IMG/VR virus record: IMGVR_UViG_3300026140_000009
Location: 1 to 26,697 of that record
Source: a virus
DNA length: 26,697 nucleotides
Direction: 5' to 3' (one strand)
In this document: positions 9,491 through 16,581 of the stretch, in pieces
Layout: every line of letters starts with the position of its first letter
How positions within the stretch are numbered: position 1 is the first letter of the stretch
Notes under the pieces: model-generated
Databases searched by the model: none
What the model saw: only the letters and a program-made list of their open reading frames with translations
Told to the model about the DNA's origin: nothing
Made by a program: the position numbers and the translations under genes

Positions 9491-10510
9491 TTACAGCCCC
9501 CGCCGCCGGCTTGGGTCGCTGCGATACCGTCCGGTGGACTCGGTGAGCGTGCGGCCGTCAAGTTGCGTGCGCCGGCCGATTCCCGTGCCGCCGAACGGCG
9601 AGCGCGTGACGTTGCCGCCGCCACCGCCCCCACCGCCACCGCCGCCGAGTGCGCCACCGAGCGACGGGACGGAAATGCCGACGTTGCTCCCGATATTGCG
9701 AAGGTCGCCAAGGAACGACCGGACGCGGCCGATAAGCGACTGAATGCCATTGATAAAGCCTTGAACGAGGTTGCGCCCCCAATTGAACGCGTCACTTGCG
9801 AGGTTGCCCGCCCATTCGGTGAGGTCGCCCGCGAAGCTGAGGAGCGACTGTTTCGCGCCGGCAAGCGCCTTGTCCGTAATGTCGCGCACGCCCCGGAAGT
9901 TAGTCACATACGCGGCGACGAACCCGACCGCAGCCGCCGCGAGCGCAGCAAGCCCAACCGTGGCCGCGCTTAGTCCGGCAATGAGGCTCCCGAGCGTGAC
10001 AGCCGCGCCCTTAACCGCACCCGCAAGCGCGCTTGCCGCGCCGATGACGCCTTTCGCTTTGATTGCCCACGCCGCAAGGCCGACTGCCGCCCCGGACGCA
10101 GCGGTGAGAATGACACCAAACACGCCCGCGAGGTCGCCAAGCGCGCCCTTGGCCGACACGACCGCGTTTGCCGCGTTGAACAGCGCCCCCGTCAAGCCGT
10201 CCGCGCCGAGGTCGCGTAAGAGTTGGTCAATCTGGAGGCCAATCGCGCTAATGATTGCGCCGAGGCCGGCCGCGAACTCTTGGAGGATCGGGACTTGCGA
10301 CAACAGCCCGCCGGTAATGAGCGCAATGCCACCCACGGCCGCGGACGCCGCGCCGGCTAAGTCCTCCGAAAAGCCGACCAACTCCTCGGCCGCGTCGCCC
10401 GACTCCTCGGCCGTTTCCTCCATCGACTCACCGATTGCCTCAACGTCCTCCCGCGTCTCCCCGACGCCTTCGGACTGAATGGCAACCACAAGCTCCTCGG
10501 CCGTGACCAT
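9491..10510 (-). CDS. Tape measure protein, short (339 aa)
   Basis: ATG at 10510 (MVTAEELVVAIQSEGVGETREDVEAIGESM) starts one base after the preceding stop; a longer in-frame start would overlap that gene. After the N-terminal helix come long hydrophobic Ala/Gly/Val-rich segments (GGIALITGGLLSQVPILQEFAAGLGAIISAIG; AAVGLAAWAIKAKGVIGAASALAG), the membrane-associating part typical of tape measure proteins. Near the C-terminus is a run of 11 glycines. Tape measures set tail length and are ejected with DNA; 339 residues is short for the family and predicts a short tail. Position after the chaperone frames supports the call. Confidence 0.85.
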   Translation of the reverse strand: MVTAEELVVAIQSEGVGETREDVEAIGESMEETAEESGDAAEELVGFSEDLAGAASAAVGGIALITGGLLSQVPILQEFAAGLGAIISAIGLQIDQLLRDLGADGLTGALFNAANAVVSAKGALGDLAGVFGVILTAASGAAVGLAAWAIKAKGVIGAASALAGAVKGAAVTLGSLIAGLSAATVGLAALAAAAVGFVAAYVTNFRGVRDITDKALAGAKQSLLSFAGDLTEWAGNLASDAFNWGRNLVQGFINGIQSLIGRVRSFLGDLRNIGSNVGISVPSLGGALGGGGGGGGGGGNVTRSPFGGTGIGRRTQLDGRTLTESTGRYRSDPSRRRGL

Positions 10511-10511
10511 G

Positions 10512-10664
10512 TTACGCCTCCGCGGGAATGTGCGCCTTGCCGAACTCCCACCCGGCAAAGGTCATGCTCACAAAGAGGCCGATAAGGCCAACGAGTGAGC
10601 CGGTGACAACCATGAACACGACACTCAGGAACGCCGCCATAACCGCGTAGTGGATTCGATTCAT
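10512..10664 (-). CDS. Small membrane protein (50 aa)
   Basis: ATG at 10664 (MNRIHYAV...) is chosen because an A/T box lies 27 nt upstream; a longer frame to 10793 would overlap the chaperone second frame. Residues about 6-40 are strongly hydrophobic (VMAAFLSVVFMVVTGSLVGLIGLFVSMTF) and form one or two membrane helices, with a short charged tail (WEFGKAHIPAEA). It sits between the tail chaperone and the tape measure. A holin-like or tail-membrane role is possible but unproven. Confidence 0.7.
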   Translation of the reverse strand: MNRIHYAVMAAFLSVVFMVVTGSLVGLIGLFVSMTFAGWEFGKAHIPAEA

Positions 10665-10702: not shown

Positions 10703-10933
10703 CTATCCCGGCCCGTTCTGCGCGCGTTCTTTCGCCCGCTTTTTCTCTTGATACCAGCGCGCCCGAACGAGCGCCGTGAGGTATCGGTTCCACCGATCCA
10801 TCTTGTGTATCTCCCGAAACGTCATGTCCGTCCCGTCTTGGACTAAGGCGTATTGAAGGATTTCGTCGCTACTCTTGGCGAAACCCGTCCGCGTCCCCGC
10901 GCAGGCGTTCGTCCTCGGTGCGGAGTGCGTCCA
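10703..10933 (-). CDS. Second frame of tail assembly chaperone (T part), expressed by frameshift
   Basis: This frame overlaps the end of the 10869-11354 gene in the +1 register and is open from 10933 to the TAG at 10703-10705. After the first gene's stop it encodes ILQYALVQDGTDMTFREIH, then a helical basic tail ending AQNGPG, the pattern of the T half of lambda gpG/gpGT-type tail chaperones, directly before the tape measure region. A likely shift site is GGG TTT CGC (10878-10886): tRNA-Phe reading TTT could slip +1 onto TTC (10880-10882), giving a fusion with 58 extra residues. A -2 slip gives the same frame. Independent initiation at the internal ATG (10825) is the alternative. Confidence 0.65.
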   Translation of the reverse strand, partial: WTHSAPRTNACAGTRTGFAKSSDEILQYALVQDGTDMTFREIHKMDRWNRYLTALVRARWYQEKKRAKERAQNGPG

Positions 10934-11354
10934 TCACCTCCTCTAAGATACGCCGGACGGGCGCGACGCCTTCGGCCTGATACGTCTGATACACGCCACG
11001 CGCCGTAATCTCGTCGTCGTCAACGAGGTCGTCAATAATCTCCCCGAGTTCGCGCACAATATCAGACACGCCATCAGGCGCGTCCTCGTCGTTCGCACGG
11101 CGTTTGGCCTCGGCGTCAAGGCGTTCCACCCGCTCGATGAACGCGCCGTTCAAGCGCCCGCTCACGGGGATTGTGACGCCCGCAATCGTGGCCTTTGTCT
11201 CAAGAAGGGGCGCACCCTCCTCGTCGGCCACGGCGTCGAATAATTCGTGCTGTTCGGCTTTGGACTGCTGGTACTCCTCATGCGCCGCAAGCGCAAGGTC
11301 CGCCGCGAGTTCGTCGGGATTGTCGGCGTCCATGCCGAGCGTGTCGTCGGCCAT
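10869..11354 (-). CDS. Tail assembly chaperone, G part (161 aa)
   Basis: An acidic helical protein (MADDTLGMDADNPDELAADL...) lies between the tail tube and the tape measure, where nearly all siphoviruses carry a tail assembly chaperone. The N-terminus is rich in Asp/Glu/Ala. The middle reads LLETKATIAGVTIPVSGRLNG, then long helices to RRILEEVMDALRTEDERL. These proteins coat the tape measure during tail assembly and are absent from the finished virion. Its stop (TAG, 10869-10871) falls inside an overlapping frame that continues another 166 nt. Confidence 0.75.
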   Translation of the reverse strand: MADDTLGMDADNPDELAADLALAAHEEYQQSKAEQHELFDAVADEEGAPLLETKATIAGVTIPVSGRLNGAFIERVERLDAEAKRRANDEDAPDGVSDIVRELGEIIDDLVDDDEITARGVYQTYQAEGVAPVRRILEEVMDALRTEDERLRGDADGFRQE

Positions 11355-11356
11355 GA

Positions 11357-11830
11357 TTAGGCGGTGCCGGACGTGTCGCTAAAGTCGCTTAGCTGGCGGC
11401 CCGACCCGGACAGGTCCCACTCCTCATATTCGCCATATGAGCCTTCAACCACGGGGAACTCGGGGAACACCACGTTTTCAACGACGGCCGTGCGTTCAAA
11501 CGTGCCGTCCGCGCTCGGCGTCACGTCCTCAATGCTAAAGAGCGCCGGGTCGGAGTCGTCTTGTGACGCGGTGGCCGTCGCGCCCTCGCCGCCGAGCCAT
11601 TCCTGCGCGGCTTCCACGCTAAACTTGGCATACGTGATTTCCACGTTCACGTTATGTTCGTATCGCTTGACGGTATCGCGGAACGACGAGTCCATTGTGT
11701 ATAGCTCCTCATGCTCATACGCGGGGACAATCGATACCTCTTGAATCCCGGCAATCGGGACGGTCGTGTCCGCGGAGTTCTGGACGCTCAACGTTCTCGC
11801 GTTAGACCAAATGGCCTCCTCACTACTCAT
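11357..11830 (-). CDS. Major tail (tube) protein (157 aa)
   Basis: The size, acidic beta-rich composition and position directly before the chaperone indicate the tail tube subunit. Features include an N-terminal strand region (TVPIAGIQEVSIVPAYEHEEL), the phrase YEHNVNVEITYAKFSVEAAQEWLGG in the middle, and FERTAVVENVVFPEFPVVEGSYGEY near the end, consistent with a tube beta-sandwich with a solvent loop. The subunits stack as rings to form the tail lumen. The ATG at 11830 is preceded by the 15-bp promoter repeat shared with the connector gene. Confidence 0.75.
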   Translation of the reverse strand: MSSEEAIWSNARTLSVQNSADTTVPIAGIQEVSIVPAYEHEELYTMDSSFRDTVKRYEHNVNVEITYAKFSVEAAQEWLGGEGATATASQDDSDPALFSIEDVTPSADGTFERTAVVENVVFPEFPVVEGSYGEYEEWDLSGSGRQLSDFSDTSGTA

Positions 11831-15063: not shown

Positions 15064-16539
15064 CTATTCTCGGGAGTAGTGCCGCGTATCAATCGGGAAC
15101 ACGCCGGTTAGTCCGTCGTCGCTCACCCCGTGCGCGTGCGCGATAGTCGGCACGTTCGGCCCCGTCACCTCGCCGAGCTTGCGCGCGTACTCGCCGCCGG
15201 GCTTCGGACTCCCGGTGATTAGCACGGGCGGGCCGTTCCACGGCAAGCGCCCTGATACGTGGTGGTGGCCCATCCATATCATGTCGACCGCCGTGCCCGC
15301 GTTGAGACTGTCGAGAATCGTACTCAGCCATTCCTTCTTGCGCGCGGACGTGTCGGCCTGCGGACTCCGGTCTTGCCCGTGGCGGAGTTGCCCGTGGATC
15401 GCGCCGTCGCGCAGGTAGAACACGGTCGGCCGGCCGGCGCGTCCGATTGTGAACTCCACGTTCTCAAGTTGCCCGCACTCTTGAAGCGCGGCCACCGTGT
15501 TCCGCACGCTCTTATACAGTATGAGGTCGGCGTTCGCCTGTTTGCTGGAGCCATTCGCGCGTATCTCGCCGTGGTTGCCGGCTTGGCATACGATATGGAC
15601 CTTAGGGAACGCTTTCGACAGCGCCTTGAGGTGGCGCAAAAGCGGCGCGTGGAGTACGTCAATCTGTTCGTCAAGCCATGCGTCTAAGTCCTCAAATTGG
15701 CCCTCATAGATGGATTCGTTCGTCACAAAGTCGCCGCCCCAAAGCGAATAGGCCGTGCGATAGTCCGATCCGTGCTTGACCGCGAGGGCCAACGACCGCT
15801 CGGTGATATGGTCAATCATCGGCGGCAAGTCCTCGGTGCGGTGTACCACGTCGCCCTGATACCCCAACACTTCATCCCCGGCGTGGAGGTCCGTCAAGTG
15901 CGTCACCCAATCTTCCGCGCCCGACGCGTCGCCCTGTGGCGTGGCGGTCGGTGTGTCAAGCTCCCGGTAGCGTCGTTCAAGCGCGGAGTGCGTGAGTTCC
16001 CACCACCGATTCGCTTTCCGGGTGCGCGTGCCCTTATGTTCGCTTGACCGCAGGGGTTCGTCCGTCTCTAAGCCGATGTATTCCGCCGTCTCGTCAATAT
16101 ACACCTTCCATCCCGACCGGCGGAGTTCGCGCAAATGCTCGGTGATAATCGCGTCGCGTTCCTCAAGCCGACCGGTGAGGTCGGCAAGCGTCGCCCCGGT
16201 CTGGAGTTCCGACACAAGCACGCGCTCGCGGTCTGTGAGGTCATCCATATCCGGCGCGGCGTCCGCAACGGGCGTGTCGGACAAGTCCGGCAGCGCGTCG
16301 CTCTCGTCGTCTGAGTCGGGTGTCTCTACGGGGTCATCGGGCGCGTCCCCGAGCGTGAATATCCGACTATTCCCGTCGCGTTCCGAATGGAGGTCATACC
16401 CCGCCGCCCGCAACGCCGCGAAGTGATCGCTCACCGTGGATTTCGTCACGTCCAGCGCGTCGGCAATCTCGCCGCGTGTCGTCGCGCCACTTGACAACTC
16501 ACGCAATACCTCGGCCTCTCGCTCCGAAAGGTCCGGCAT
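15064..16539 (-). CDS. Double winged-helix / calcineurin-type phosphoesterase fusion (491 aa)
   Basis: ATG at 16539 (MPDLSEREAEVLREL) has a CTTTTTG box about 28 nt upstream; a longer in-frame start at 16575 is less likely. Residues 1-65 form a winged helix (TRGEIADALDVTKSTVSDHF is the helix-turn-helix). Residues about 100-157 look like a second, diverged copy (LADLTGRLEERDAIITEHL). From about 208 there is a metallophosphoesterase with the full motif series: D217-x-H219, GGD (268-270), GNH (321-323), H382-G, GHHH (424-427). Such enzymes hydrolyse phosphoester bonds with two metal ions, and some, like Mre11/SbcD, act on DNA. The N-terminal helices would direct it to DNA. It could be a virus-encoded nuclease or a regulatory phosphatase; the substrate is not known. 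Confidence 0.85.
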   Translation of the reverse strand: MPDLSEREAEVLRELSSGATTRGEIADALDVTKSTVSDHFAALRAAGYDLHSERDGNSRIFTLGDAPDDPVETPDSDDESDALPDLSDTPVADAAPDMDDLTDRERVLVSELQTGATLADLTGRLEERDAIITEHLRELRRSGWKVYIDETAEYIGLETDEPLRSSEHKGTRTRKANRWWELTHSALERRYRELDTPTATPQGDASGAEDWVTHLTDLHAGDEVLGYQGDVVHRTEDLPPMIDHITERSLALAVKHGSDYRTAYSLWGGDFVTNESIYEGQFEDLDAWLDEQIDVLHAPLLRHLKALSKAFPKVHIVCQAGNHGEIRANGSSKQANADLILYKSVRNTVAALQECGQLENVEFTIGRAGRPTVFYLRDGAIHGQLRHGQDRSPQADTSARKKEWLSTILDSLNAGTAVDMIWMGHHHVSGRLPWNGPPVLITGSPKPGGEYARKLGEVTGPNVPTIAHAHGVSDDGLTGVFPIDTRHYSRE

Positions 16540-16564
16540 TACGTGAACGGTAGGGCCACGGCCG

Positions 16565-16571
16565 CAAAAAG
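16565..16571 (-). promoter_or_regulatory. TATA-like box for the phosphoesterase gene
   Basis: CTTTTTG on the minus strand, about 28 nt upstream of the ATG at 16539; it sits in the gap after the stop of the 16582 gene. Confidence 0.5.
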
Positions 16572-16581
16572 GCACGCCCGC

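What the first reader, a model, noticed from the sequence alone, without database searches (positions are those of the whole stretch)
10703..11354. Tail assembly chaperone with a +1 (or -2) overlapping second frame
The 10869-11354 gene ends with TAG inside another frame that stays open from 10933 to 10703 and encodes a chaperone-T-like helical tail. Lambda-type phages make this extension by -1 frameshifting; here the downstream frame is +1, and the -1 frame runs into a stop shortly after the overlap. The codons GGG TTT CGC (10878-10886) offer a simple route: tRNA-Phe slips from TTT to TTC. Programmed +1 shifting in a haloarchaeal virus tail gene would be unusual.
Basis: partly seen in the sequence, partly recalled or inferred. 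Interest (0 to 1): 0.8.

Follow-up and report, generated by a model that had tools for sequence, protein, structure and literature searches.

The report
Frameshifted tail chaperone in halovirus
This virus of salt-loving archaea almost certainly makes a longer version of a tail-building helper protein by having some ribosomes skip one base at the sequence TTT-CGC; the same trick had been proposed for one other group of such viruses, and here it proves conserved in a second family and turns up in a third, where databases record it wrongly or not at all.

Summary
On the minus strand a 161-codon gene (11354-10869) overlaps a +1-frame ORF (stop to stop 10933-10703) that has no ATG/GTG/TTG before the conserved region. 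The gene lies between tail tube and tape measure genes and is a relative of Haloferuviridae (HRTV-29, HRTV-4, HFTV1). The +1 extension is conserved in all 12 family members found and is under purifying selection in that frame (pn/ps 0.24, against 1.03 for the -1 frame). In-frame TTT_CGC sits in the overlap in every one. The same UUU_CGN site occurs in all 12 Hafunaviridae checked, whose G proteins are not detectably related, and in HRTV-28 (Suolaviridae, one genome, unannotated). UUU_C is the only position in all of these where a P-site tRNA can re-pair in +1. It is not unprecedented: +1 was predicted for HSTV-2, TTT-CGC was proposed for the HF1 group in 2020, and UUU_CGN drives influenza PA-X. 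New here: extension to two more families, and evidence that GenBank's "-1" (HRTV-29) is the wrong frame and "-2" (Hafunaviridae) is unlikely.

The parts
10869..11354 (-). G-like tail assembly chaperone, 161 aa, zero frame, stop TAG 10871-10869
   Evidence: 88% identical to HRTV-29 gp64. 33-37% to HFTV1 and HRTV-4. No Pfam or PHROG hit.
10878..10883 (-). Proposed +1 slip site TTT_CGC: P-site TTT 10883-10881 slips to TTC 10882-10880; base 10880 is skipped; the next codon GCC starts at 10879
   Evidence: Invariant TTT_CG[C/T] in 25 distinct sequences of three virus families.
10703..10882 (-). T extension in the +1 frame (FAKSSDEILQYALVQDG...RAQNGPG, stop TAG 10705-10703); the +1 ORF is open from 10933
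   Evidence: Conserved in 12 of 12 family members. pn/ps 0.24. Predicted three-helix fold, pLDDT 85. No start codon before codon +19.
10703..11354 (-). Predicted GT fusion, 216 aa: 11354-10881 joined to 10879-10703; junction GDADGF-AKSSDE
   Evidence: Inference from the above; no protein data.
11357..11830 (-). Tail tube gene directly upstream
   Evidence: 94% identical to HRTV-29 gp62 'tail tube'; 66% to the HFTV1 tail tube protein.
10512..10664 (-). Small membrane-type protein between T and tape measure (ATG 10664), relative of HRTV-29 gp65
   Evidence: 94% identity.
9491..10510 (-). Tape measure protein gene (homology begins at ATG 10510)
   Evidence: 68% identical to the HRTV-29 tape measure protein; weak PHROG tape measure hit.

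Best explanation
The gene encodes a G-type tail assembly chaperone. A small share of ribosomes shift +1 at UUU_CGC, four codons before the stop, and make a 216-aa GT protein in which the helical T domain replaces the last few residues of G. The likely step is that peptidyl-tRNA-Phe (anticodon GAA) slips from UUU to UUC while the A site holds CGC; the next codon read is GCC. By analogy with lambda, G would coat the tape measure protein and T would recruit tail tube subunits, and the low shift rate would set the G to GT ratio. Shown here: frames, conservation, selection, gene order and uniqueness of the re-pairing site. Inferred: the shift itself, its rate, and the roles of G and T.
For: All 12 distinct family members carry the +1 extension with TTT_CGC in the overlap. 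T is under purifying selection in the +1 frame only: pn/ps 0.24, against 1.03 in -1 and 2.4 in 0. UUU_C is the only P-site position that can re-pair in +1 in all 24 sequences tested. In L030/L031 the site is GGG TTT CGC TAA with only a 26-nt overlap, which pins the shift to that stretch. The same UUU_CGN site occurs in 12 Hafunaviridae with G proteins that show no homology and in HRTV-28 as GAG TTT CGT TGA. Background in-frame TTT_CGN is 1-3 per 10,000 codons, so finding one in an overlap by chance has P of about 0.002-0.007 per family. The window has no start codon for a separate T. Gene order is tail tube, G/T, tape measure.
Against: No protein or reporter evidence. No stimulator found: no conserved downstream structure and only a weak Shine-Dalgarno-like signal upstream. 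CGC is the commonest Arg codon in this virus and UUU is not rare, so a hungry-codon pause is not supported. UUU_CGN also occurs at other in-frame places in the same genomes. Within one family, the invariant T of TTT is also constrained by the Phe codon of the +1 frame. The G model has no solved-structure match, and its structural similarity to annotated tail chaperones is weak.
Confidence: 0.87

Rival explanations
1. The same frame is reached by a -2 shift, as in phage Mu and as GenBank records state for several Hafunaviridae.
For: Frames +1 and -2 are identical. GenBank notes '-2' for HRTV-13, HJTV-2, HRTV-25 and HRTV-27. Natural -2 shifting exists in phage Mu (PMC3498833).
Against: A -2 slip of tRNA-Phe would land on GGU, GAU, CCU, AGU or AAU in the various sequences, with mismatches at both first positions. 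UUU_C to UUC pairs fully in every sequence (codons). PA-X at the same motif was shown by peptide sequencing to be +1 (PMC3498833).
Confidence: 0.05
2. T is translated on its own by re-initiation near the end of G, as annotated in HRTV-4 (gp65) and HFTV1 (gp37).
For: HRTV-4 and HFTV1 have an ATG two codons before the TTC of the slip site.
Against: That ATG exists only where the codon is GAT GGG; the window, L003, L005 and L008 read GAC GGG. The window and L032 have no start codon upstream of the conserved domain, and the HRTV-28 +1 ORF has none at all. Re-initiation would not explain an invariant TTT_CGN in unrelated genes.
Confidence: 0.05
3. A -1 shift, as GenBank states for HRTV-29 gp63.
For: HRTV-29 has an open -1 frame of 64 codons after the stop; record note '-1 frameshift'.
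Against: The -1 frame closes after 7-31 codons in nearly all relatives, 8 in the window, and shows no selection (pn/ps 1.03). There is no X_XXY_YYZ heptamer at the site.
Confidence: 0.01
4. The overlap is a chance open frame with no function, or a sequencing error that split one gene.
For: Long spurious ORFs are common in GC-rich DNA.
Against: The same overlap recurs in isolates and metagenome contigs assembled independently, with selection on the +1 product.
Confidence: 0.01

Closest known systems
HF1-group haloviruses (Hafunaviridae: HF1, HF2, Serpecor1, Hardycor2) tail chaperone pair with TTT-CGC
   Same: Tail chaperone gene before the tape measure gene, +1 overlap, in-frame TTT-CGC near the G stop, proposed as the shift site in PMC7230728
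   Different: Myoviruses of another order. G proteins not detectably homologous. The codon after CGC is the rare AGA in most of them, but CAA or AAA in the window and its near relatives.
HSTV-2 tail assembly chaperone
   Same: +1 frame fusion annotated in the record. Reviews cite it as very likely +1. The site is TCC TTT CGC.
   Different: Different family. E-site codon UCC as in influenza, whereas the window has GGG.
Influenza A PA-X and plant amalgavirus +1 sites (UUU_CGN)
   Same: UUU_C P-site slip with CGN in the A site; low-level +1 (0.7-1.3% for PA-X, PMC3498833; PMC5052127)
   Different: RNA viruses on eukaryotic ribosomes; the product is unrelated; experimentally proven for PA-X, not here
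Lambda gpG/gpGT and other phage tail chaperones
   Same: Position between tail tube and tape measure; G with a low-level frameshifted T extension
   Different: Lambda shifts -1; no sequence match to the known families in Pfam or PHROGs
-1 type halovirus chaperones (HCTV-1/2/5, HVTV-1; here also HATV-2 and HATV-3)
   Same: Same gene position and presumed role
   Different: -1 heptamers: A_AAA_AAC in HATV-2 and G_GGA_AAC in HATV-3

Membership tests
Tailed-virus G/GT tail assembly chaperone pair | Two overlapping frames between the major tail (tube) gene and the tape measure gene | tested here: met
   Tail tube 94% and tape measure 68% identical to the annotated HRTV-29 proteins
Tailed-virus G/GT tail assembly chaperone pair | T frame conserved and under selection as a protein | tested here: met
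Tailed-virus G/GT tail assembly chaperone pair | Sequence or fold match to a known tail chaperone family | tested here: inconclusive
   No Pfam or PHROG hit. Weak Foldseek hits to annotated tail chaperones (ChaoS9 prob 0.87, ctvv53 prob 0.69), none significant. No PDB match.
Tailed-virus G/GT tail assembly chaperone pair | Fusion protein made at a low ratio and needed for tail assembly | not testable with these tools
   Needs protein data and mutants
UUU_CGN (PA-X-like) +1 frameshift sites | UUU in the zero frame followed by CGN, inside the +1 overlap | tested here: met
   TTT_CGC at 10883-10878; 25 of 25 sequences
UUU_CGN (PA-X-like) +1 frameshift sites | E-site UCC (stimulatory in influenza; to my reading not a defining feature, since amalgavirus sites are named only by UUU_CGN) | tested here: not met
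   GGG in the window; the E-site codon varies (GGG, GGA, TCC, AAG, ACC, GAA, GAG); TCC only in HSTV-2, HRTV-7, L040 and L041.
UUU_CGN (PA-X-like) +1 frameshift sites | Direction and site of the shift proven by peptide | not testable with these tools
   No proteomics available. The HFTV1 virion study searched only the 68 annotated proteins (PMC12494034).

The most novel reading that the evidence does not exclude
UUU_CGN is a +1 slip site that works on archaeal as well as eukaryotic ribosomes, without a strong stimulator, and was recruited independently for the tail chaperone ratio in at least three archaeal virus families (Haloferuviridae, Hafunaviridae, Suolaviridae). If proven, it would be the first +1 programmed frameshift class demonstrated in Archaea.
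Probability: 0.6. Interest if true: 0.72.

Novelty: new member of a known kind. Interest (0 to 1): 0.5.

Why it matters
A 2021 review counts a single experimentally shown archaeal frameshift, a -1 case (PMC8211752). A motif shared with influenza virus and plant amalgaviruses, recurring in archaeal virus genes that show no common ancestry, suggests that slipperiness of UUU before CGN is a general property of ribosomes. HFTV1, HRTV-4 and HF2 are cultured isolates, so this is directly testable. It also indicates errors in public records: HRTV-29 (-1), several Hafunaviridae (-2), HRTV-4 and HFTV1 (separate ORFs), HRTV-28 (not annotated).

Tried and rejected
Looked for relatives in genome contigs with G and T alignments: none. 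Looked for a downstream stimulatory structure: 80-nt folds are no better than shuffled in the family (z between -1.2 and +1.0). Upstream Shine-Dalgarno pairing: moderately strong in Haloferuviridae (best 3-23% of gene positions) and absent in several Hafunaviridae, so not a common element. Rare-codon pausing: CGC is the commonest Arg codon. Transcriptional slippage: no homopolymer run longer than three at the site. Slip of tRNA-Gly on GGG_U: excluded as a common mechanism because L005 and L006 have GGA_U and Hafunaviridae have other codons there. Homology of G between Haloferuviridae and Hafunaviridae: none found, though both profiles are thin (Neff about 2.2-2.5). PDB fold search of G: nothing. 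Folding the whole GT fusion with a four-letter codon was dropped because T contains a second TTTC that also triggers the rule. Searching haloarchaeal genomes by class was not possible for a virus record. Pietila 2013 and Sencilo 2013 are not held, so what they say is known only through reviews.

Full report
What is there. The window is a 26.7-kb virus record. The gene at 11354-10869 on the minus strand encodes 161 residues and ends GAC GGG TTT CGC CAA GAG TAG. A second frame, +1 relative to it, is open from 10933 to 10703. The closest named relative is HRTV-29 (Haloferuviridae, Kirjokansivirales; G protein 88% identical), and HRTV-4 and HFTV1 of the same family are more distant, at 33-38%. The gene directly upstream is the tail tube gene (94% identical to HRTV-29 gp62). 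After a small membrane-type gene follows the tape measure gene (68%). This is the standard position of the G/T tail assembly chaperone genes.

Is the +1 frame real? Twelve distinct sequences of this family were collected from isolates and metagenome contigs. Every one has the +1 extension, with the same helical protein. In the part that does not overlap G, the six closest sequences show pn/ps 0.24 in the +1 frame, 1.03 in the -1 frame and 2.4 in the zero frame. The T peptide is therefore a selected protein. AlphaFold models it as a confident three-helix domain (pLDDT 85).

Can T be made on its own? In the window the +1 ORF has no ATG, GTG or TTG before codon +19 past the slip site, well inside the conserved domain. 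In HRTV-4 and HFTV1 an ATG arises from GAT GGG and was used to annotate a separate ORF, but the window and others read GAC GGG.

Where is the shift? Among 24 sequences from three families, TTT_C was the only codon in the overlap from which a P-site tRNA can re-pair one base downstream in every case. In L030 and L031 the overlap is only 26 nt and ends GGG TTT CGC TAA. The codon before TTT varies, while TTT_CG[C/T] is invariant in 25 of 25 distinct sequences (12 Haloferuviridae-like, 12 Hafunaviridae, 1 Suolaviridae; CGC in 23, CGT in 2). Within one family the T of TTT is also fixed by the Phe codon of the +1 frame, so the stronger argument is recurrence in genes with no detectable kinship: hhalign of the two G families gives 0.2% probability. 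Background in-frame TTT_CGN is 1-3 per 10,000 codons, giving a chance of 0.2-0.7% per family of finding one in the overlap. The profiles are thin, so very remote common ancestry of the G genes cannot be excluded.

A third family. HRTV-28 (Suolaviridae) gp33, a 'hypothetical protein' between tail tube and tape measure genes, ends GAG TTT CGT TGA and has a +1 extension of 69 residues with no start codon at all. This is one genome without relatives, so it rests on anatomy alone. Other haloviruses use -1: HATV-2 at A_AAA_AAC and HATV-3 at G_GGA_AAC, and HGTV-1 has its T-like frame in -1. HHTV-1 has a +1 frame after UUU_CCA, but T there has its own ATG.

How it probably works. Peptidyl-tRNA-Phe (one isoacceptor, anticodon GAA) moves from UUU to UUC while CGC waits in the A site, and translation goes on at GCC. 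This is the mechanism proposed for influenza PA-X at UCC_UUU_CGU, where peptide sequencing showed +1 and the rate is about 1% (PMC3498833), and for amalgaviruses (PMC5052127). A rate of this order fits the low GT to G ratio of lambda, about 1 to 30 (PMC5009743). I found no stimulator: no downstream structure, no consistent Shine-Dalgarno-like pairing, and no rare A-site codon. The same motif also stands at other in-frame places in these genomes, where a slip would mostly soon hit a stop or is simply tolerated.

What was known. Reviews cite +1 frameshifting as very likely in HSTV-2 (PMC5009743, PMC8211752). For the HF1 group, PMC7230728 named the TTT-CGC motif and compared it to the eukaryotic viruses. 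For Haloferuviridae I found no such statement. The HRTV-29 record says -1, which the comparison contradicts. The HRTV-13, HJTV-2, HRTV-25 and HRTV-27 records say -2, which is the same frame but would need unpaired landing codons. The HFTV1 structure paper mentions neither chaperone nor frameshift. This case is therefore a new member of a known, still untested kind.

Verdict. Observation confirmed, interpretation supported, novelty moderate. The claim that matters, UUU_CGN as a +1 site in a further domain of life, now rests on 25 sequences in three families and one straightforward peptide test (GDADGFAK for +1, GDADGFFAK for -2).

Noticed in passing
L037 / MZ334526 30391-31070 (HRTV-29 gp63): GenBank joins this chaperone by a '-1 frameshift'; the conserved, selected frame is +1, so the deposited C-terminus appears to be wrong.
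   Followed up: yes
L057 / MZ334528 17666-18308 (HRTV-28 gp33): Unannotated +1 extension after GAG TTT CGT TGA, with no start codon in the extension: a probable G/GT gene of Suolaviridae.
   Followed up: partly
L060 / NC_021322 24105-25020 (HHTV-1 gp33/gp34): T-like frame is +1 of G after CAG TTT CCA GAA TAA (UUU_C but not CGN), and T has its own ATG: frameshift or separate gene is open.
   Followed up: partly
L064 / NC_021328 16397-17058 (HGTV-1 gp19/gp20): Unannotated -1 frame extension of the gene before the tape measure gene, near GAT TTT CAC: probable -1 type chaperone.
   Followed up: partly
window 10814-10819, minus strand: The T frame of the window holds a second TTT CGG (in MTFRE), so a second slip inside T is conceivable; the FR pair is not conserved in the more distant relatives.
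   Followed up: no
window 15064-16575, minus strand: Exonuclease-type protein (PHROG 284) with an ArsR-like helix-turn-helix at its N-terminus: an unusual-looking fusion of a DNA-binding domain to a nuclease.
   Followed up: no
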